A program made the translations under genes and the position numbers. Shown here piece after piece: positions 1 through 6,349 of a stretch of DNA of 41,394 nt. The notes beneath the pieces are model-generated. The model did no database searches and was not told the DNA's origin. It saw only the letters and a program-made list of their open reading frames with translations. The stretch's first letter is position 1, and every line of letters starts with the position of its first letter. Source of the DNA: an uncultured Desulfosporosinus sp. (GTDB lineage: Bacteria; Bacillota; Desulfitobacteriia; Desulfitobacteriales; Desulfitobacteriaceae); NCBI GenBank assembly GCA_927405585.1, contig CAKMJS010000128.1:1-41394 (forward strand), read 5' to 3'.

Positions 1-948
1 ACGTTTGATCGCTTCATAACTATAAAGTCCTCTCCGCTCGTCTTCTAGAAACTCAGGGGTACCACTAAAAATGATATACAAACCTGAGACATTGCCCTGC
101 AGAGTATCATTGAAGATTTTAAGAATGGTTTCATAGTTCTTATCCCTCGACTGCGGATGGGTTATTTTATATAGATTTATCGCCTCATCGAAATTGATGA
201 CCAAGCCAGAATACCCAATTTGGCGGACGAATTGCGCGATGATCTTAAGATAATCATAGTAGTTCGAGTCATCGATAATATCTCTGACTCCCAGATCCCC
301 TCTAGCCTCAGTTTTAGTCGAATATTCTCCTCGTAACCAACGCAGTGCGCTGCGCTGGAGGGAATTGTTATCTTCCACAAAACCCTTAAAATATTGCATC
401 AGGACTCGTACAAAATCGAACCCACCCACGAGCTGGTCCATCATAGTTGCGGTCTCCGCAATCTCGTGTTCCACATCGATAATAAATTGAGGATTATCAT
501 ACTCAATTGACCCGTACCCTTTTTCTTGCATGGTTTTGGTCTGTACTTCACTAATCCATTGATCCAAAATCATCGGTAAAGCATTTCCATCGGGGCAAGT
601 AGCGACCGCTAGATTTTTCATCATTTCCGAATAAGTAGCCACAGCCCTGCCCTCAGAGCCATATAGGCGACGATTTGCATCAAAATCAACCTTGCCAACC
701 GCAAATTTTTCACTGAAGGCGACTTGCTGGATTAATGCTTGCAGAAACGTCTTACCTGAACCAAAGGGCCCAATAATAAATTTAATGACCGAGGCTCCGT
801 CCTTAACAGTCTCTAAATCATTCAAAATTTGATTGACCTCATCTTTGCGGCCGACCATAATATGTTCCAGACCCCTATTAGGTACAACTCCCCCGTAAAG
901 AGAGTTTAAAATTGCTGTGGATTCTTTTTTACGAAGTTTTCCCGCCAC
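1..948 (-). CDS. BrxD-like (DUF2791) P-loop ATPase, partial at the window edge
   Basis: An open frame of 316 residues begins at a GTG (946-948) and runs off the left edge, so the C-terminus is missing; the family is usually a little over 400 residues. A Walker A motif GPFGSGKT lies at residues 60-67. A Walker B-like LVINFDEA is at 249-256, and a family-typical FSGTPEFLEDERRGLYSYEA stretch is at about 294-313. This combination identifies the ATP-binding family found as BrxD in some BREX phage-defence systems and, outside BREX, beside TerB-domain proteins and superfamily II helicases. The start is fixed by AGGAGG nine bases upstream, inside the end of the preceding gene, and the two genes are four bases apart, so they are co-transcribed. 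The role in DNA processing or defence is inferred from family and context. The ATPase family call is firm; the exact subfamily is less so. Confidence 0.8.
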   Translation of the reverse strand, partial: MAGKLRKKESTAILNSLYGGVVPNRGLEHIMVGRKDEVNQILNDLETVKDGASVIKFIIGPFGSGKTFLQALIQQVAFSEKFAVGKVDFDANRRLYGSEGRAVATYSEMMKNLAVATCPDGNALPMILDQWISEVQTKTMQEKGYGSIEYDNPQFIIDVEHEIAETATMMDQLVGGFDFVRVLMQYFKGFVEDNNSLQRSALRWLRGEYSTKTEARGDLGVRDIIDDSNYYDYLKIIAQFVRQIGYSGLVINFDEAINLYKITHPQSRDKNYETILKIFNDTLQGNVSGLYIIFSGTPEFLEDERRGLYSYEAIKR

Positions 949-952
949 TGAT

Positions 953-2608
953 CTAAGCCTCCTCGACAAGTCTGTGTAGCACATCTTCGAAATCACTATT
1001 AAGCCTTAAAACGTCTCCCTCTTGTTCAATGAGGTTGTCCCCCAAATCTTCCAATGCCTTCTCGTTAAGGGCGTTAAGGAAGACCCCCAGCATAATGCCA
1101 CGACTTTTAAGGTAATTAATCCCCTCTTGCTTGGCTCTTATGAGACCCTCGAACCCTAGGAGGAATTCACCTTCTAGCTTGCTTAACTTGTCCATGAACG
1201 TCTCTAAGCCCTCATCCGAGGACACTGGGATTATATCATAAATGAGTTTTTTTTGTATTAGTGGGCGTTGCAGAGAATTATCCTGTGTTTTCGGATCCGA
1301 TTGGTCGTGAAGATCAAGGCTCTCGTCATCATATCGCAGGGCAAAAATCTCGATTAACTCTTTGCTTTCTTTATCTAACGTATCGATTCGCTCTAAATCA
1401 AACTCAATCAGTGGAATTGCCACACCTTGTTCCAGAATCTCAGGCGGTTCTGGAATCAAACTACCCCTGCCCTTAATCCCTTTGTCCCTTGCTTTGATAA
1501 AGCGACTTTCAGAGACTAGTGACGGTGTTTGCACGTTATCAAGAAACAATTCGAAGAGTGCATTTTTAAAGCCTTCTGGAAAGAGTGCTTCATCGACTGA
1601 TAATTGGCGCTTCTCTCCTGTTTTAACTCGGGCAACATTTTTCGCTAGTCGAAATAAGGCTGTAAGATCGTCTCTCATTTTTAACGCCGGAAATCGTTTT
1701 GCTTCAAGTTTAATGACTACCTTACGACCTATCACAGCATTTGTAAATAATCGCCGTTCAAGACTGGAGTTTTCTGTGAGGGGTATCCATGCATTTATTA
1801 GGTTTTCTCCTTGAGCTTGATACTGCCTTTCCAAGAGCCCAATCGAAGTTTTGAAAACTTTATAAATGTGATTTCTATTCGTCTTAAAGAAAGCTGTTTT
1901 ATTATATCTTATAAATCGTTTCCAAAAGGAAATAGAAACTGTCTCTAGTTTATTCTCAAATTGTTTGAGTGTTTCATAATCGGATAACTCATAGTTTCGT
2001 ATCTTAGCGGTCCACTTCTTTTCAAGGGCACCCTCTCCTAATTCATAGCAAAAATCAGCAATCCAGCGTGGTAAAAAATGAGCCAAATTATAATGCTTAT
2101 CCTGATAATTTAGAAAAATTCGATCCAACATACTTAAATTAAATGCTGCTTTATCATTAAAGGTGTAATTCAGTAGTTCATAGACAAAGATTAAGATGTA
2201 GCCTGGATCAGCATAGAGGTAGTTCCCCCTCAGAACTTCCTTTCTCCAGTAGAAATACCATTCCTTTTGTGCCTTATTGAGACTGTCAAACGATGGTTCA
2301 TAAATCTTAAGGAAAACGGGCATTGCAGATTTCCCCTGTGTCTCCTGTCGCTTAGAAAAAGCCACAGAATCCTTGCAAAACTTGAAGCTATTGCCTGTAT
2401 ACTGAGCCTCTTGGAAAGGCATCCCCTTGATAGTTTCCAGAAAAACTTTGACTGATAAAGGTGTTTCGACATGTTGATATTCTGAAAGAATCAAAGTTTC
2501 TACAGGATATATTAAATCTTCAGAGATAGACAATGTCTTCTCATTTACAAGTTCCGTCGCGCGTTTAAGATTAAACTTATCGAGCATGGTCAATAGTTTA
2601 TCGATCAT
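953..2608 (-). CDS. TerB-N/TerB-C domain protein, predicted defence or stress component
   Basis: The protein has 551 residues. Around residues 105-200 the stretch KAQKEWYFYWRKEVLRGNY...DPGYILIFVYELLN is typical of the TerB-N domain (aromatic-rich, a W..WR..V..G pattern, then a hydrophobic Y-E-L helix). The last 130 or so residues, with GFEGLIRAKQEG and an acidic LIEQEGD tail, resemble TerB-C. No central TerB domain with conserved metal-binding acids is obvious. There is no signal peptide or membrane segment, so it should be cytoplasmic. The family is known from tellurite-resistance-associated and predicted anti-phage gene neighbourhoods, often next to a DUF2791 ATPase and a helicase; here the ATPase gene follows four bases downstream. 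ATG start with a GAAGGAC-type site upstream. Function is inferred from domain and neighbourhood only. Confidence 0.72.
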   Translation of the reverse strand: MIDKLLTMLDKFNLKRATELVNEKTLSISEDLIYPVETLILSEYQHVETPLSVKVFLETIKGMPFQEAQYTGNSFKFCKDSVAFSKRQETQGKSAMPVFLKIYEPSFDSLNKAQKEWYFYWRKEVLRGNYLYADPGYILIFVYELLNYTFNDKAAFNLSMLDRIFLNYQDKHYNLAHFLPRWIADFCYELGEGALEKKWTAKIRNYELSDYETLKQFENKLETVSISFWKRFIRYNKTAFFKTNRNHIYKVFKTSIGLLERQYQAQGENLINAWIPLTENSSLERRLFTNAVIGRKVVIKLEAKRFPALKMRDDLTALFRLAKNVARVKTGEKRQLSVDEALFPEGFKNALFELFLDNVQTPSLVSESRFIKARDKGIKGRGSLIPEPPEILEQGVAIPLIEFDLERIDTLDKESKELIEIFALRYDDESLDLHDQSDPKTQDNSLQRPLIQKKLIYDIIPVSSDEGLETFMDKLSKLEGEFLLGFEGLIRAKQEGINYLKSRGIMLGVFLNALNEKALEDLGDNLIEQEGDVLRLNSDFEDVLHRLVEEA

Positions 2609-2662
2609 TCCAGTCCTTCGCCCTTCTATTTACAGGTTCTACCTATATTAGCCCATCTAATA

Positions 2663-2691
2663 ATTATAGCAGGTTAAACCTAGTATCATAA
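2663..2691 (-). promoter_or_regulatory. Extended -10 promoter for the TerB/BrxD-like operon
   Basis: On the minus strand a perfect TATAAT (2663-2668) is preceded by TGC, giving an extended -10 element. A weak -35 candidate TTATGA (2686-2691) lies 17 bases upstream. Start codon distance is about 55 bases. Position directly upstream of the two-gene operon fits an independent promoter for the accessory pair. Confidence 0.5.
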
Positions 2692-2747
2692 CAGTTATCA
2701 CCAGGAAAAAATACGTCCAAGCCTTCCTCTTAGTTAACAAAACCAAA

Positions 2748-2945
2748 TCATACCCTGCAATCCTTGTACCGAGCCATTTCTTCAAAATCAATAACTCTCC
2801 CCTCAAGTTTGGCATGATCTAAGGTCAGAGGTTTCCGAACAAGGACTATTACCTTAGAGTATTCATGGCTATTCAATAAGCAACTGAGTAATTCGCTACC
2901 CACTAACCCGCTTGAGCCCACAATAAGCGCCGATTTTCCTACCAT
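2748..2945 (-). pseudogene. Truncated NAD(P)-binding Rossmann-fold oxidoreductase (5' fragment)
   Basis: The frame gives 65 residues from the ATG at 2945, which has GGGGAGG eight bases upstream; an in-frame TTG six bases earlier is less likely. It reads as the N-terminus of an atypical short-chain-dehydrogenase/HTATIP2-like protein: dinucleotide motif GSSGLVGSEL, then VIVLVRKPL, then a LEGRVIDFEEM segment. Such proteins are normally about 215 residues and continue with a conserved FCCLGTT segment; here translation stops immediately before it. The fragment keeps a good ribosome site but lacks two thirds of the fold, including the substrate side, so it is probably dead. Its broken end lies next to the TerB operon promoter, which suggests insertion or deletion at the junction. 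Confidence 0.65.
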
Positions 2946-2990
2946 TCGCAACCCCTCCCCTTTTCCATCGCTTACCTAGTGTGACCCTAA

Positions 2991-3122
2991 GTGCATTTGA
3001 GTCGTATACGCAAACAGCAACCCCCAGTTTCCACCTAAACCCACAGCAAGCTAGCCCCAAAAGGGAGCTCTCTAAGTTTAAGATCATACCAAGTGCATTT
3101 GCGTCAAAGAACGCAAACAGCG
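2991..3122. repeat. Short direct repeat pair around acgcaaacag
   Basis: Two related stretches, 2991-3017 and 3092-3121, share gtgcattt, then gtc, then acgcaaacag with a few variable bases. A third relative is at 18442-18466 (cctttgcgtttacgacgcaa then acagc). All three sit next to copies of the long dispersed element, so this is probably its variable outer part. No convincing gene lies between 2952 and 3509. Confidence 0.55.
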
Positions 3123-3174
3123 TCACACACCCCAAATTGTGCAAGTTAAAGCGTCCCCGAGCTTGCACTCGTCG

Positions 3175-3505
3175 TTCCAAACCCTGTCGACCCAAGCTAG
3201 AGGGAGTTTTTTAGCTTAAGAAGCACTTTAGTGGAAGCGCGTCAATGAGCGCAGTCGATACGGCGTGAAGAAACGCAACGGTCGCACATGCAGAAAGCAC
3301 AAGGGTTTTGCGTTTTAGCCTTAGCGACAAGCGAATAGCACGATAGTCTCCGGTGGAGAGTATCGCCGAAGCCGCGATCCCTAAAGGAATACTTACCGGC
3401 GTAGGATTGAAGCACGATAGTCTCCGGGGGAGAGTATCGCCAAGGCGCTGAACCACAAACGAACACTTCGCGCCGTAGGATGCTGCGACTGTGCTAATAA
3501 ACTTC
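3175..3505. repeat. Long dispersed intergenic repeat, copy 1
   Basis: About 330 bases that share many blocks, in the same order and orientation, with 18480-18786: cgacccaagctagagg, gtgaagaaacgcaac, cgcacatgcag, ggttttgcgttttag, cttagcgacaag, a hairpin core, gctgcgac, and acttcctccc. Two hairpins CGATAGTCTCC/GGAGAGTATCG occur here (3341-3365 and 3415-3439), each with arms of 11 bases, one mismatch and a 3-base loop; the second may be an extra unit. No coding potential convinces in any frame. It separates the phosphodiesterase gene from the accessory region. Confidence 0.75.
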
Positions 3506-3509
3506 CTCC

Positions 3510-4997
3510 CTAGAAACCGAAATGTCCCATTATCATCGGAAACAAGTCAATAATCCTCGGATAATCTAGCCTAACTGGCATACCAGTAACGATCATCGGT
3601 ACCGTCGAATCCTCTTCTTCAAGCGATCCGTGGCTCCCACCTCCCGGATGAATGGGGGCCCCTGCTGCTAAATATTCATAGCCTGATACAGCAGAAACGA
3701 CTACTCGGCTCCCGCTCCGTGCCTCAAGAGCTGAGGAAAGACGACCAAATGCATCAGGGTACTTACCAAATTCAATTTTTTGCTTGCATTTCACCTGGGC
3801 ATCGACCACGGTTAAATCCCCTTCAAAGGTCCAGGTTTGACCGTATACATCCTGATACGGGCCAACTCGCCCAAAGAAAAGTTGTTTCTCCGTTCCACCT
3901 TGAAGGACACAATACTTATTTTCAGAGATTTTCCAAGCAATCTGGGCATTACGTGGATCCTTGGCCAGAATACCAACGATGTCGTGTAATATCTCGTTTT
4001 TTCGCTGGAGAACGTAAATAAAGGCCATACGTTCATTCGGGCATATGGCAATTTCTTTGTTGTTATTCCCACTCGCTTCTTCTGTAGCCCTTAATCGTTT
4101 AAACGACTTTAAAGCACGATCTAGATCGATCAGGTATTCATTGCCTAAGCCGACCAACGACTGCGCATGGTCGCCAGTAACAATAATGACATTTTCCTCA
4201 AGGGCTTTTTCCCAAGAACCAAACTCATCAAGGACTGATGCCACTAGTAAATCTGCTTGTTCAATCGATGGACCAGTCCTCAATGGGCCGTAATGATGGG
4301 AATACTTATCATTATCTGGAAAATAAACAACCATGAAATCCGGTTGTTTACCTTCCCTAATTAGCTGCGCAGAGATTTTCCCGGAGAAGGCATCATTAAA
4401 ACCAAAACGATTTAATGGTCCTCTTGGATAGGCACTTGCCCGTTCGGCGAAAGTTGGATGGACGAGTTGACCCAACGTCAGGTGGGAAGGCCCTAATACT
4501 TCTGCTTCAGTGAAACGAAAACCAGTGGCCAAAGAGAGTGAAAAAGGAATTTTTGCCTTGTAAGGACGCGTAGCTCTATGCATAAAAAGATTCACATTTC
4601 CTGTACTATATCCTTTACTCTCGAGTTCTTCATACAGGGTAGGCGTATCCGAGCTAAGGTGTTCTTGATTGAGTTTAATCAGTAGGTTGCGTAGAACCTT
4701 CTCAGTCCCAATTTTAATGACACTTTGTAAAGTCGCTCCGTAATCCACGATTTTCCGGATATCCTCGTTATACCAGATGAATCCAGGGACTCCATGCCGA
4801 TCTGGCCATGTTCCCGTAATCATAGAACTTGTGGCAACTGGGGTCATAGTTGGGAACGAAGAAACAACTCGCTCGAAATAAGTTCCGTGTTTAGCCAAAA
4901 AACGAAAAGCAGGAACATAGCCTTCAGAAAGAAGTCGTGCTAAAACCACAGGATGAAGGGAGTCTACCACAAATAAGATTACCTTTTTCACGGTCAA
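3510..4997 (-). CDS. Alkaline-phosphatase-superfamily phosphodiesterase/nucleotide pyrophosphatase-like protein
   Basis: This is a 495-residue member of the metal-dependent alkaline phosphatase superfamily (type I phosphodiesterase/nucleotide pyrophosphatase branch). Expected two-zinc-site elements can be seen in order: Asp12 in FVVDSLHP; a nucleophile region SFPTMTPVATSSMITG at about residues 47-61 (Thr50 or Thr52); FPDNDKYSHHYGP in the middle; TGDHAQS; and a late HPGGGSHGSLEE with the last histidine. There is no clear signal peptide, because the hydrophobic start (KKVILFVVDS) is the first beta strand, so a cytoplasmic location is likely. The substrate cannot be read from sequence; phosphodiesters, nucleotides or phosphonates are all possible. 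It stands alone between the UspA gene and a dispersed repeat, with a 188-base gap upstream. Confidence 0.75.
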   Translation of the reverse strand: MTVKKVILFVVDSLHPVVLARLLSEGYVPAFRFLAKHGTYFERVVSSFPTMTPVATSSMITGTWPDRHGVPGFIWYNEDIRKIVDYGATLQSVIKIGTEKVLRNLLIKLNQEHLSSDTPTLYEELESKGYSTGNVNLFMHRATRPYKAKIPFSLSLATGFRFTEAEVLGPSHLTLGQLVHPTFAERASAYPRGPLNRFGFNDAFSGKISAQLIREGKQPDFMVVYFPDNDKYSHHYGPLRTGPSIEQADLLVASVLDEFGSWEKALEENVIIVTGDHAQSLVGLGNEYLIDLDRALKSFKRLRATEEASGNNNKEIAICPNERMAFIYVLQRKNEILHDIVGILAKDPRNAQIAWKISENKYCVLQGGTEKQLFFGRVGPYQDVYGQTWTFEGDLTVVDAQVKCKQKIEFGKYPDAFGRLSSALEARSGSRVVVSAVSGYEYLAAGAPIHPGGGSHGSLEEEDSTVPMIVTGMPVRLDYPRIIDLFPMIMGHFGF

Positions 4998-5117
4998 CCC
5001 CCTTCCAAAATATCACCCATCTATAAAATCATCTTCATGTTATCTTTCACTGAACAACCTTATAATTTTTAACAGAAGTAAATTTTTCTTCAAAATAAAT
5101 ATTGTGCGCAGATACAG

Positions 5118-5152
5118 AACAAGGCTCAGAGCAAAAAGCTTCTAGCCTTGTT
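5118..5152. other. Long inverted repeat downstream of the UspA gene
   Basis: Arms of 15 bases (aacaaggct... and ...agccttgtt, extended inward by agc/gct with a 3-base internal mismatch) enclose a 5-base loop. It would form a stable hairpin in RNA from either strand. There is no U-run, so it is more likely a 3'-end stabilising or processing structure than an intrinsic terminator. The rest of the 4998-5185 gap shows nothing recognisable. Confidence 0.4.
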
Positions 5153-5185
5153 GAATCACCGAGTACCTATTCTTGATAAATGTAT

Positions 5186-5614
5186 TCACTTCACAATAAG
5201 AACAGAACATTTTGCTCCATGGAGAACGCGTTGACTGACGCTACCTAAGATAGTGCCAGTAATTGCCCCGTAACCATGACTTCCCATAACAACTAAATCT
5301 ATATTCTGATTTTCTATCTCTTGTAATATGATGTTTGCTGGTTTTCCTTGCATAACTTTCTTGATTATGTTGACGTTCGAACTATCGGATCCTTGCAGAG
5401 TGTCTTGGATCGCCTGCTCCCCTCCTAGTTCATTTTGTTCCCGCCAATTAATATGCTCGTCGAGCAAATTCACAGCATACGCTCGCGGCTGATCCATGAC
5501 GATCAGAAGCTCGATTTCCGAGTCAAATTTCCTAGCAATTTCCAAAGCACGCTTCAACGCTTTCCGTGAGTACTCCGAAGCATCTGTGGCCACCAATATT
5601 TTCTTCAGAATCAA
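5186..5614 (-). CDS. Universal stress protein, UspA family
   Basis: The protein is a single-domain UspA of about 142 residues. The start KKILVATDASEYS and the C-terminal GSHGYGAITGTILGSVSQRV show the G-2x-G-9x-G(S/T) pattern of the ATP-binding Usp subclass; it ends CSVLIVK. It is cytoplasmic and probably dimeric; these proteins bind nucleotide and support survival under stress, but the exact job is not predictable. The start is odd: the TTG at 5614 lies only two bases from AGGAGG, while a CTG two codons later (5606-5608) is eight bases from it and would give the family-typical MKKILVATD. A CTG start is therefore plausible. An inverted repeat lies about 50 bases upstream. Confidence 0.9.
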   Translation of the reverse strand: MILKKILVATDASEYSRKALKRALEIARKFDSEIELLIVMDQPRAYAVNLLDEHINWREQNELGGEQAIQDTLQGSDSSNVNIIKKVMQGKPANIILQEIENQNIDLVVMGSHGYGAITGTILGSVSQRVLHGAKCSVLIVK

Positions 5615-5662
5615 CCCCTCCTTCTACCTCATCTCTCTGCCAACTAAAATTCCACACTTTTT

Positions 5663-5691
5663 AATGATATCCTTCCATTTTAAGGATCATT
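5663..5691. promoter_or_regulatory. Inverted repeat upstream of the UspA gene, possible operator
   Basis: Minus-strand AATGATCCTT and AAGGAT-at-CATT form an interrupted inverted repeat with a 7-base centre and a 2-base bulge, about 50 bases before the start codon. It could be an operator or a leader hairpin. No convincing -35/-10 pair was found around it. Confidence 0.3.
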
Positions 5692-5743
5692 ATGATTTCT
5701 TATTAAGACAAACTAGTCTTAGTGCATCCTAAACCATTAGTTT

Positions 5744-6349
5744 TTAGATTTTCCGGCTCCCTGGCTTGATAGCAGGGATCCCTTGTGCACATAGCGGGCA
5801 TTCCAGAGCTTCATAGGCTTGGATGTGCAACTGAATTATAGAGGCCGTCGGCAGTCCAAAATCCACGGTACCTCCTGTTCGGTCGACAAGAATGCCGACG
5901 CCAACCGAAATAGCCTCAAATTCTTGGACTACAGCTAAGACCTCGCGTACGGATCCACCGGTCGTGATCACATCCTCCACGACCAAGACGCGTTCTCCCG
6001 GAGAAAGTGTGAACCCTCTGCGCAAACGCATGACTCCGTTTTCCCGTTCTGTAAATAGCGCTCGAACGCCTAAGGCCTTGGCGACTTCGTGGGCCACCAA
6101 GATCCCTCCTGTAGCGGGTCCAATAACAGTTTGTATCCCCTGATCTTGAAACGACGCGGCAAGCCCCTTGGCCAATGTTGCTGCCCGCTCAGGATACTGC
6201 AAGACTTGAGCACACTGCATATATTGAGCACTATGTTTTCCTGAGGTTAACAGAAAGTGCCCATCCAATAGAGCTTTACTCTCTCGAAATAAATCTAAAT
6301 ATTCGGCTTGTTTTAGTTTAGCTTCTTCTGCGTTCATTTGTTTTTTCAT
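5744..6349 (-). CDS. pyrE: Orotate phosphoribosyltransferase
   Basis: PyrE converts orotate and PRPP to orotidine 5'-monophosphate, the fifth step of UMP synthesis. The 201-residue product carries the type I phosphoribosyltransferase PRPP loop VLVVEDVITTGGS, the flexible-loop region after FTERENG, and GPATGGILVAHEVA. The start chosen is the ATG at 6349 (MKKQMNAEEA), with AAGGAG nine bases upstream; a longer frame reaches 6394 but has no ribosome site. It is the last gene of the pyr operon, 60 bases after pyrF, and no strong terminator is visible after it. A C-terminal extension with a CPLC pair (ECPLCAQGIPAIKPGS) is seen in many clostridial PyrE proteins. Confidence 0.96.
   Translation of the reverse strand: MKKQMNAEEAKLKQAEYLDLFRESKALLDGHFLLTSGKHSAQYMQCAQVLQYPERAATLAKGLAASFQDQGIQTVIGPATGGILVAHEVAKALGVRALFTERENGVMRLRRGFTLSPGERVLVVEDVITTGGSVREVLAVVQEFEAISVGVGILVDRTGGTVDFGLPTASIIQLHIQAYEALECPLCAQGIPAIKPGSRKI

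What the first reader, a model, noticed from the sequence alone, without database searches (positions are those of the whole stretch)
1..2608. Two-gene TerB-N/TerB-C + BrxD-like ATPase operon: a candidate defence system leaving the window
Seen: a promoter-like extended -10, a 551-aa TerB-N/TerB-C protein and, four bases on, a P-loop ATPase of the BrxD/DUF2791 family (Walker A GPFGSGKT, Walker B LVINFDE). Family knowledge: BrxD belongs to BREX phage-defence systems, and TerB-N/C proteins recur with such ATPases and with superfamily II helicases in predicted stress or defence loci. None of the other BREX genes (pglX, pglZ, brxC) is in view. Inference: this is a stand-alone helicase-ATPase-TerB defence module whose next gene (helicase?) lies left of coordinate 1.
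Basis: partly seen in the sequence, partly recalled or inferred. Interest (0 to 1): 0.8.

Follow-up and report, generated by a model that had tools for sequence, protein, structure and literature searches.

The report
A Shango anti-phage operon in Desulfosporosinus
The window edge holds the first two genes of Shango, a known three-gene bacterial anti-phage system whose helicase gene lies on another piece of the same genome; its parts look like a machine that loads a helicase onto DNA, but how Shango works has not been shown.

Summary
Window 953-2608(-) encodes a 551-aa TerB_N/TerB_C protein and 1-948(-) the first 316 residues of a BrxC/BrxD-family ATPase. PADLOC names them SngA (2e-38) and SngB (1e-130; BrxD 9e-48): Shango, not BREX. 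PglZ was not found and SngB is the only BrxC/D hit in the genome. The window begins at a contig end; the predicted helicase, SngC (5e-192), starts contig C134, which one relative's synteny places next. About 0.4-0.5 kb, with the end of sngB, is missing. The genus is Desulfosporosinus; 6 of 29 genus genomes have a close SngA, at more than one site, and synonymous divergence suggests transfer. The SngB model resembles ORC/Cdc6 and TnsC ATPases, SngA ends in a probable winged helix, SngC is an SF2 helicase nearest Lhr/Ski2-like ones. I propose that SngA senses, SngB loads and SngC remodels DNA. SngA here has no recognisable TerB core; 9 of 11 tested clade relatives outside the genus carry a TM2 membrane anchor. 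New member of a known kind; mechanism open.

The parts
953..2608 (-). sngA: TerB_N/TerB_C protein, 551 aa, stop included
   Evidence: Pfam TerB_N 3.5e-19, TerB_C 1.2e-8; PADLOC SngA 2.3e-38
1955..2413 (-). TerB_N domain of SngA (residues 66-218), with the family motif WYFYWR and invariant R122 and E144
956..1231 (-). probable C-terminal winged-helix domain of SngA (residues about 460-551, within TerB_C)
   Evidence: AlphaFold2 model pLDDT 83.6; VIA-align Z 5.8-8.6 in the 50 rows shown, nearly all winged-helix chains
1..948 (-). sngB, 5' part: ORC/Cdc6-like AAA+ ATPase, cut by the contig end (possible start at 996)
   Evidence: Pfam BrxC_BrxD 9.1e-118; PADLOC SngB 1e-130; fold of a full-length orthologue
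748..771 (-). Walker A GPFGSGKT of SngB
   Evidence: G77, G80, G82, K83 of the orthologue invariant in 48 SngB rows
184..195 (-). Walker B NFDE of SngB
   Evidence: D271, E272 of the orthologue invariant in 48 rows
28..63 (-). GTPEFLEDERRG motif of SngB (candidate sensor / arginine-finger region; assignment recalled)
   Evidence: G313, T314, G324 invariant and R322, R323 nearly invariant
958..964 (-). GAGGAGG, ribosome-binding site for sngB inside the end of sngA (translational coupling inferred)
   Evidence: sequence
2663..2671 (-). extended -10-like TGCTATAAT upstream of sngA
   Evidence: 3 in window, 1.17 expected; no two-hexamer site

Best explanation
Identity (shown): these are sngA and the start of sngB of a Shango anti-phage operon, sngA-sngB-sngC, in a Desulfosporosinus genome; sngC is on contig C134, the neighbour of the window contig by synteny with one relative. 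Mechanism (inferred, about 0.5): Shango is a loader-helicase machine that acts on invading DNA. SngA, a mostly helical protein ending in a probable winged helix, recognises or is brought to phage DNA or a phage-induced structure. SngB, an ORC/Cdc6-TnsC-type AAA+ ATPase, assembles there with SngA and uses ATP to place SngC on the DNA. SngC, a superfamily 2 helicase nearest Lhr/Ski2-like ones, then translocates and unwinds or strips the DNA and so blocks phage replication. No nuclease or toxin fold was recognised in SngA or SngB, which does not exclude one; otherwise any cutting would come from host enzymes. Shown: gene content, order, active-site motifs, folds by prediction, selection, mobility. 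Not shown: DNA binding, loading, complex formation, anti-phage activity of this copy. Confidence: identity 0.95, mechanism 0.5; the figure below is for the whole statement.
For: PADLOC SngA, SngB and SngC models hit all three proteins, SngB and SngC well above BrxD and BrxHI. SngC motifs TASGKT, DEIH, SAT, GRSGR present. Synteny across the contig break with G003. SngA and SngC profile hits lie on the two sides of SngB in 66 of 80 loci of other genomes, SngC alone in 5 more; of the 9 loci without SngC, 6 genomes were searched and 6 of 6 have an SngC elsewhere. SngB model: best matches A. pernix ORC2 (Z 16.3, 258 aligned, 3.5 A) and Cdc6/Orc1 2qby (15.9), first TnsC row 13.8. SngA residues about 460-551 winged helix. 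SngC: nearest NCBIfam model is the ligase-associated DEXH helicase TIGR04121 (1e-66, 225 bits, under its cut-off of 850); best solved relatives ASCC3 and the DNA helicases 5v9x and 7lhl (Lhr, name recalled), core only. Purifying selection on all three genes. Shango of P. aeruginosa PA14 lowered plating 10-100-fold for many, not all, phages tested (PMC10250203, passages).
Against: The last ~125 aa of SngB, the sngB-sngC spacer and the first codons of sngC are absent from this assembly, so the copy could be damaged there. The first 162 bases of C134 are not operon but pieces of another gene. AAA+ folds serve many functions; HslU and RdrA lead the Foldseek list. The winged-helix scores are in a range the tool calls common, and a winged helix can bind protein: the two top rows are plant NLRs. 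SngA outside that part had no convincing match. TM2 anchors on relatives' SngA fit a membrane role at least as well as DNA sensing.
Confidence: 0.55

Rival explanations
1. Abortive or membrane-acting system: SngB and SngC sense phage DNA processing and release or switch on SngA, which is the effector at the membrane (anchored by TM2 in most tested clade relatives, recruited some other way in Desulfosporosinus).
For: TM2 domain at the N-terminus of 9 of 11 tested clade-I SngA from outside Desulfosporosinus; SngA has the highest dN/dS of the three; Hachiman is a precedent of a helicase that restrains an effector (PMC12278908, start of abstract, passages).
Against: Window SngA and the Desulfosporosinus proteins L086 and L088 have no TM2; no toxin, nuclease or channel fold recognised (not proof of absence); only four residues invariant in 58 SngA, no obvious catalytic set.
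Confidence: 0.25
2. Non-defence stress or repair module: the ATPase-helicase pair repairs or remodels chromosomal DNA under stress, with phage protection as a side effect.
For: TerB kinship; SngC resembles repair helicases; the genes beside it in the window read as housekeeping genes, not a defence island (names mostly by eye).
Against: Patchy presence (close SngA in 6 of 29 genus genomes), more than one site, SngB relatives on 692 of 72,556 plasmid records, signs of horizontal transfer, published anti-phage activity of a homologous system.
Confidence: 0.1
3. Fragment of a type 2 BREX locus (BrxD plus BrxHI).
For: SngB hits BrxD (9e-48) and SngC hits BrxHI (6.7e-127).
Against: SngB and SngC models score far higher; BrxD equivalog score 162, cut-off 350; no PglZ and no second BrxC/D in the 98.6% complete genome; the partner is SngA.
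Confidence: 0.02
4. In this strain the operon is broken: sngB is truncated or parted from sngC by a rearrangement at the contig break.
For: Contig ends on both sides; C134:1-162 is a mosaic of pieces of a SulP-like gene, 98% identical to G009; the phosphoesterase next to sngC lies inverted relative to its neighbours when compared with relatives; in complete relatives G007, G011 and G028 the flanks are 1.8, 2.4 and 2.5 Mb apart; decayed copies exist in G005 and G016.
Against: Order and orientation of the two contigs agree with the closer relative G003; sngA, the read part of sngB and sngC (from about codon 9) are open and under purifying selection; the mosaic looks like a chimeric contig end.
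Confidence: 0.12

Closest known systems
Shango (SngA-SngB-SngC), described in E. coli and P. aeruginosa PA14
   Same: Three genes, same order, TerB-type protein, BrxC/D-family ATPase, DEAD/DEAH helicase; PADLOC models hit all three.
   Different: The tested strains' proteins were not fetched. Against an E. coli plasmid form (L180, PADLOC 350/618/936 bits): SngB of the D. metallidurans orthologue 39.5% identical (H53); window SngA 551 aa without a recognisable TerB core, L180 SngA 769 aa with one; a separate SngB clade.
Type 2 BREX BrxD-BrxHI pair
   Same: SngB and SngC are homologues of BrxD and BrxHI; a loader role for BrxD was proposed in PMC12839542 (passage read).
   Different: Scores under the BrxD cut-off; no PglZ and no second BrxC/D in the genome; PglX and PglW were not searched.
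Bunzi, Dionysus and other TerB-carrying defence systems
   Same: TerB-type proteins named in anti-phage systems (PMC10952713 table, passage; PMC12926258, passages).
   Different: Not compared by sequence here.
ORC/Cdc6 and TnsC AAA+ ATPases
   Same: Predicted fold of SngB.
   Different: No sequence relative of the SngB profile in the PDB at E 0.1; partner and job differ.

Membership tests
Shango | SngA (TerB_N/TerB_C protein) | tested here: met
   PADLOC PDLC03958 131 bits, 2.3e-38, model 82-526/528. Low in its range: best phylum members 340-380 bits, many others 140-250
Shango | SngB ATPase next to SngA | tested here: met
   PADLOC PDLC03959 1e-130; BrxD 9.2e-48; 3' part of the gene not in the assembly
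Shango | SngC helicase after SngB | tested here: met
   C134:172-2241, 4.9e-192; adjacency in this genome by synteny only, gap unsequenced; direct adjacency seen in five relatives
Shango | TerB core domain PF05099 in SngA (listed for Shango in a table of PMC10952713) | tested here: not met
   No hit in window SngA; 0 of 58 SngA of alignment A2 at E 0.01 (12 of 69 candidates were left out of A2, and members over 620 aa were cut to their last 560). 5 of 5 tested SngA of plasmid or viral contigs have it. It is not needed for a PADLOC SngA hit, so I do not treat it as defining; a degenerate remnant is not excluded
Shango | anti-phage activity | not testable with these tools
   shown for PA14 Shango in PMC10250203 (passages), not for this copy
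BREX (type 2) | BrxD equivalog score | tested here: not met
   162 bits, cut-off 350; full-length orthologue 174 bits
BREX (type 2) | PglZ and a BrxC present | tested here: not met
   PglZ 0 hits in the genome; one BrxC/D hit only, which is SngB; genome 98.6% complete
BREX (type 2) | PglX and PglW present | not tested
   no search made
ORC/Cdc6-type AAA+ (fold) | AAA+ core of the initiator clade | tested here: met
   VIA-align Z 16.3 to 1w5t, 15.9 to 2qby; the ten best rows are all ORC/Cdc6; model of the D. metallidurans orthologue, pLDDT 88.2. Foldseek alone ranks HslU and RdrA first
Helicase loader (function) | loads a helicase on DNA with ATP | not testable with these tools
   inference only

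The most novel reading that the evidence does not exclude
Shango is bacterial immunity built on replication-initiation logic: an ORC/Cdc6-like ATPase (SngB) is steered by an interchangeable recognition subunit (SngA: a TerB-core form on the plasmid and viral contigs tested, a short form in the Bacillota-rich set, a TM2 membrane-tethered form in the clade of this window) to load an Lhr/Ski2-like helicase (SngC) onto incoming DNA, with no nuclease of its own. In the membrane-tethered form it would stand at the point of DNA entry.
Probability: 0.35. Interest if true: 0.65.

Novelty: new member of a known kind. Interest (0 to 1): 0.35.

Why it matters
Shango protects bacteria against phages, but a 2026 review lists its mechanism among the unknown ones (PMC12926258, passage). 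The data here give a testable order of events (sense, load, translocate), name the motifs to mutate, and show SngB clades that go with different SngA architectures, which suggests that SngB and SngC are the core and the front of SngA is the part that is swapped. The Desulfosporosinus copy itself is an ordinary, mobile member.

Tried and rejected
BREX remnant: rejected by scores and by absence of PglZ and of a second BrxC/D. IS element at the start of C134: my first reading; rejected when the matching pieces in G009 proved to lie in and at the end of a long frame that reads by eye as a SulP sulfate permease; a chimeric contig end is the simpler account, and the piece has no second copy in the assembly. 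Contigs C128 and C134 far apart: suggested by complete relatives G007, G011 and G028, overturned for the closer relative G003, where the phosphodiesterase and TraB-like genes are neighbours in the same order and orientation. Structured RNA: Rfam 0 hits in window 1-6000 and L022 1-600, fold of L022 1-130 z -0.86. Two-hexamer promoter or terminator in 2560-3560: none. Known fold for SngA outside the C-terminal domain: no convincing match in PDB or viral libraries, which is not evidence of a new fold. PDB sequence relatives of the SngA and SngB profiles: none convincing. SngB in annotated phage genomes: no match in 50,697 records. SngA relatives in viral contigs by direct search: none; the SngB profile found 7 loci. 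Exact overlap of 11-200 bases between the contig ends: none. Literature: 8 searches brought up no paper on the mechanism, and none holding both Desulfosporosinus and Shango; other Shango papers seen as passages only: PMC10855318, PMC11096173, PMC10221251. The founding Shango paper (Millman 2022) was not seen; it is known to me from other papers' text.
Full report
What is there. The window is contig C128 of a 4.48-Mb, 181-contig genome; the nearest named SngB relatives are Desulfosporosinus. Reading leftwards, sngA (2608-953) and sngB (948 to the contig end) form a tight pair with a GAGGAGG ribosome-binding site for sngB inside the end of sngA. Pfam gives TerB_N, TerB_C and BrxC_BrxD. PADLOC gives SngA and SngB, the names used for the Shango system. 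NCBIfam gives a sub-threshold BrxD hit (162 bits, cut-off 350) and nothing meaningful for SngA. Names of flanking genes below are read by eye except the phosphodiesterase and the phosphoesterase (Pfam).

The missing helicase. In the same genome the best SngC hit (4.9e-192) starts at base 172 of contig C134; the next best is 6e-21. A PADLOC scan of that protein gives SngC 1.4e-192, BrxHI 6.7e-127. The last ~125 aa of SngB were not found in the assembly. In relative G003 the genes pyrD-pyrF-pyrE-USP-phosphodiesterase of the window are followed, about 0.8 kb on and in the expected orientation, by the TraB-like gene that is at C134:5662-6831, and further on by the aminotransferase of C134:9193. 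So C134 should follow C128, with Shango, a phosphoesterase, a ferredoxin and an aldehyde-ferredoxin-oxidoreductase-like gene in between, while G003 has no Shango at that place; its copy is next to a CarD-like gene, as in G008. Against simple adjacency: in complete relatives G007, G011 and G028 the flanks are 1.8, 2.4 and 2.5 Mb apart, and C134:1-162 consists of two oppositely oriented pieces of a SulP-like gene, 98% identical to G009 although genes beside it are only about 76% identical to that genome. I read that as a chimeric contig end; it is not proven.

Distribution and mobility. Of 29 genus genomes searched with window SngA, 10 have any match: six close copies, full or edge-cut (G000, G003, G008, G019, G020, G027), one decayed (G005), and three distant frames of 1233-1234 aa (G004, G026, G028) that have an SngB-like match beside them. 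A decayed sngC lies in G016 and a partial sngC match in G022 that cannot be judged. In a phylum sample, 23 of 398 genomes match the SngA model at 1e-10, this one included. Synonymous divergence from G008 (NG86) is 0.52-0.71 for the three sng genes but 1.21-1.98 for four flanking core genes; against G003 the two sets overlap (0.66-0.88 and 0.62-1.08), and against G027 sng genes are 0.66-1.14 and the one core gene compared 1.49. This fits transfer within the genus for the G008 comparison; values over 1 are near saturation. SngB relatives are on 692 of 72,556 plasmid records (Klebsiella 449, Salmonella 144); the weakest listed is annotated BrxD, so not every one is Shango. None of 50,697 phage records matched.

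Operon conservation. In 66 of 80, frames hitting my SngA and SngC profiles lie on the two sides of SngB; in 7 only SngA, in 5 only SngC, in 2 neither within the stretch held. Of the 66, 60 have an SngA-SngB gap of 50 nt or less, and 60 an SngB-SngC gap of 50 nt or less. In the 7 viral-contig loci, 6 have SngC and none hit my SngA profiles, but the two upstream proteins scanned are TerB_N-TerB-TerB_C proteins. Nine of the 80 loci lacked SngC; I searched the genomes of six (L103, L131, L138, L145, L156, L161) and 6 of 6 have a strong SngC elsewhere (6e-190 to 1e-271; the SngC model also rings weaker helicases in 9 of 14 control genomes). For L103 the contig simply ended 37 nt after sngB, and in L145's genome SngC is in two frames. 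L147, L150 and L159 were not searched. The helicase seems seldom to be dispensed with.

Architecture. Of 69 candidate SngA I aligned 57 with the window protein; 12 were left out. All 58 have TerB_N and TerB_C and none a TerB core (members over 620 aa were cut to their last 560 aa, so N-terminal domains are under-counted there). Five of five SngA tested from plasmid or viral contigs have the TerB core (L165, L169, L179, L180, L181). A MAFFT alignment sets 81 window residues against the 107-residue core, so a degenerate remnant cannot be excluded. In the clade of the window, 9 of 11 full-length SngA from outside Desulfosporosinus carry an N-terminal TM2 domain (L074, L076, L089, L090, L092-L096; not L075, L091; L074-L076 are placed in the clade by 55-68% SngB identity, and are not in the tree), and window SngA, L086 and L088 do not. 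A maximum-likelihood tree of 51 chosen SngB (48 of alignment A3 and three plasmid ones) holds the 13 rows of the window's clade together (98/92) and sets 7 rows labelled TerB-core apart (100/100); of those 7 labels, 5 were tested by Pfam. dN/dS is highest in sngA and lowest in sngB.

Folds. The SngA model (pLDDT 83.6) has a probable C-terminal winged helix, residues about 460-551 (best Z 8.6, 83 aligned, 3.4 A; 3 of 992 chains at Z 8 or more; no Foldseek match at E 0.001); the tool warns that such Z values can be a common arrangement, so the winged helix rests also on the secondary-structure order. The SngB model (D. metallidurans orthologue, pLDDT 88.2, pTM 0.85) matches ORC/Cdc6 best by VIA-align (Z 16.3 down to 13.9 in the first ten rows), then TnsC (13.8); Foldseek alone lists HslU and RdrA first, with ORC at rank 4. 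SngC keeps the motor motifs; its nearest NCBIfam model is the ligase-associated DEXH helicase, under cut-off. PMC12278908 places SngC with BrxHI, DruE and DpdJ in one potentially distinct helicase clade (passage).

Mechanism. PMC12839542 proposes that BrxD may help to load or activate BrxHI in type 2 BREX (passage). Since SngB and SngC are the Shango counterparts of that pair, since SngB has an initiator-type fold, and since SngC accompanies SngB in nearly every genome looked at, the best reading is loader plus helicase, with SngA as recognition or anchoring subunit. Every step after gene identity is inference. The main rival, a membrane-acting or abortive SngA, is kept at 0.25 because of the TM2 anchors.

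Novelty. The locus is a new member of a known system. The correspondence between SngB clades and SngA front ends, and the TM2-tethered form, did not come up in the papers that searches listed, of which I saw passages of a few; the founding paper was not available and the searches are by words only.

Noticed in passing
window 3170-3410: Dispersed repeat with further copies in this genome (for example contigs C29, C162, C19, C74, C35, C77) and in many genus members, partly a two-copy 71-nt tandem at 3337-3481. No Rfam match.
   Followed up: partly
window about 2750-2945 (-): Short broken reading frame that looks by eye like the start of an NAD(P)-binding oxidoreductase; no family search made.
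   Followed up: no
L022:1-162 (start of contig C134): Two oppositely oriented pieces of a SulP-like gene with a 4-nt overlap in the query, 98% identical to G009; probably a chimeric contig end.
   Followed up: partly
L138, L145, L156, L161: Three Coriobacteriaceae and one uncultured actinobacterium with sngA-sngB and no sngC in the 2.7-5.4 kb held downstream; a sngC lies elsewhere in each genome.
   Followed up: partly
L179:6015-8748: On a Sulfitobacter plasmid sngABC runs, 2 bases on, into genes annotated PD-(D/E)XK nuclease family and UvrD-helicase (AddAB-like, my reading).
   Followed up: no
L017, L018, L019: Three other genus genomes carry a distant Shango kind with a 1233-1234-aa SngA-like frame followed by an SngB-like match.
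   Followed up: partly
L097:3995-9445: Mucilaginibacter locus with SngB-SngC and an upstream 665-aa protein that hits TerB_C but not TerB_N and starts with a hydrophobic segment.
   Followed up: no
L028:3821-4172 and L071:2937-3273: Decayed sngA (G005) and sngC (G016), signs of loss in the genus.
   Followed up: partly
L147, L159: Oscillospiraceae loci with extra genes between the SngA-like frame and sngB: three in L147, one in L159.
   Followed up: no
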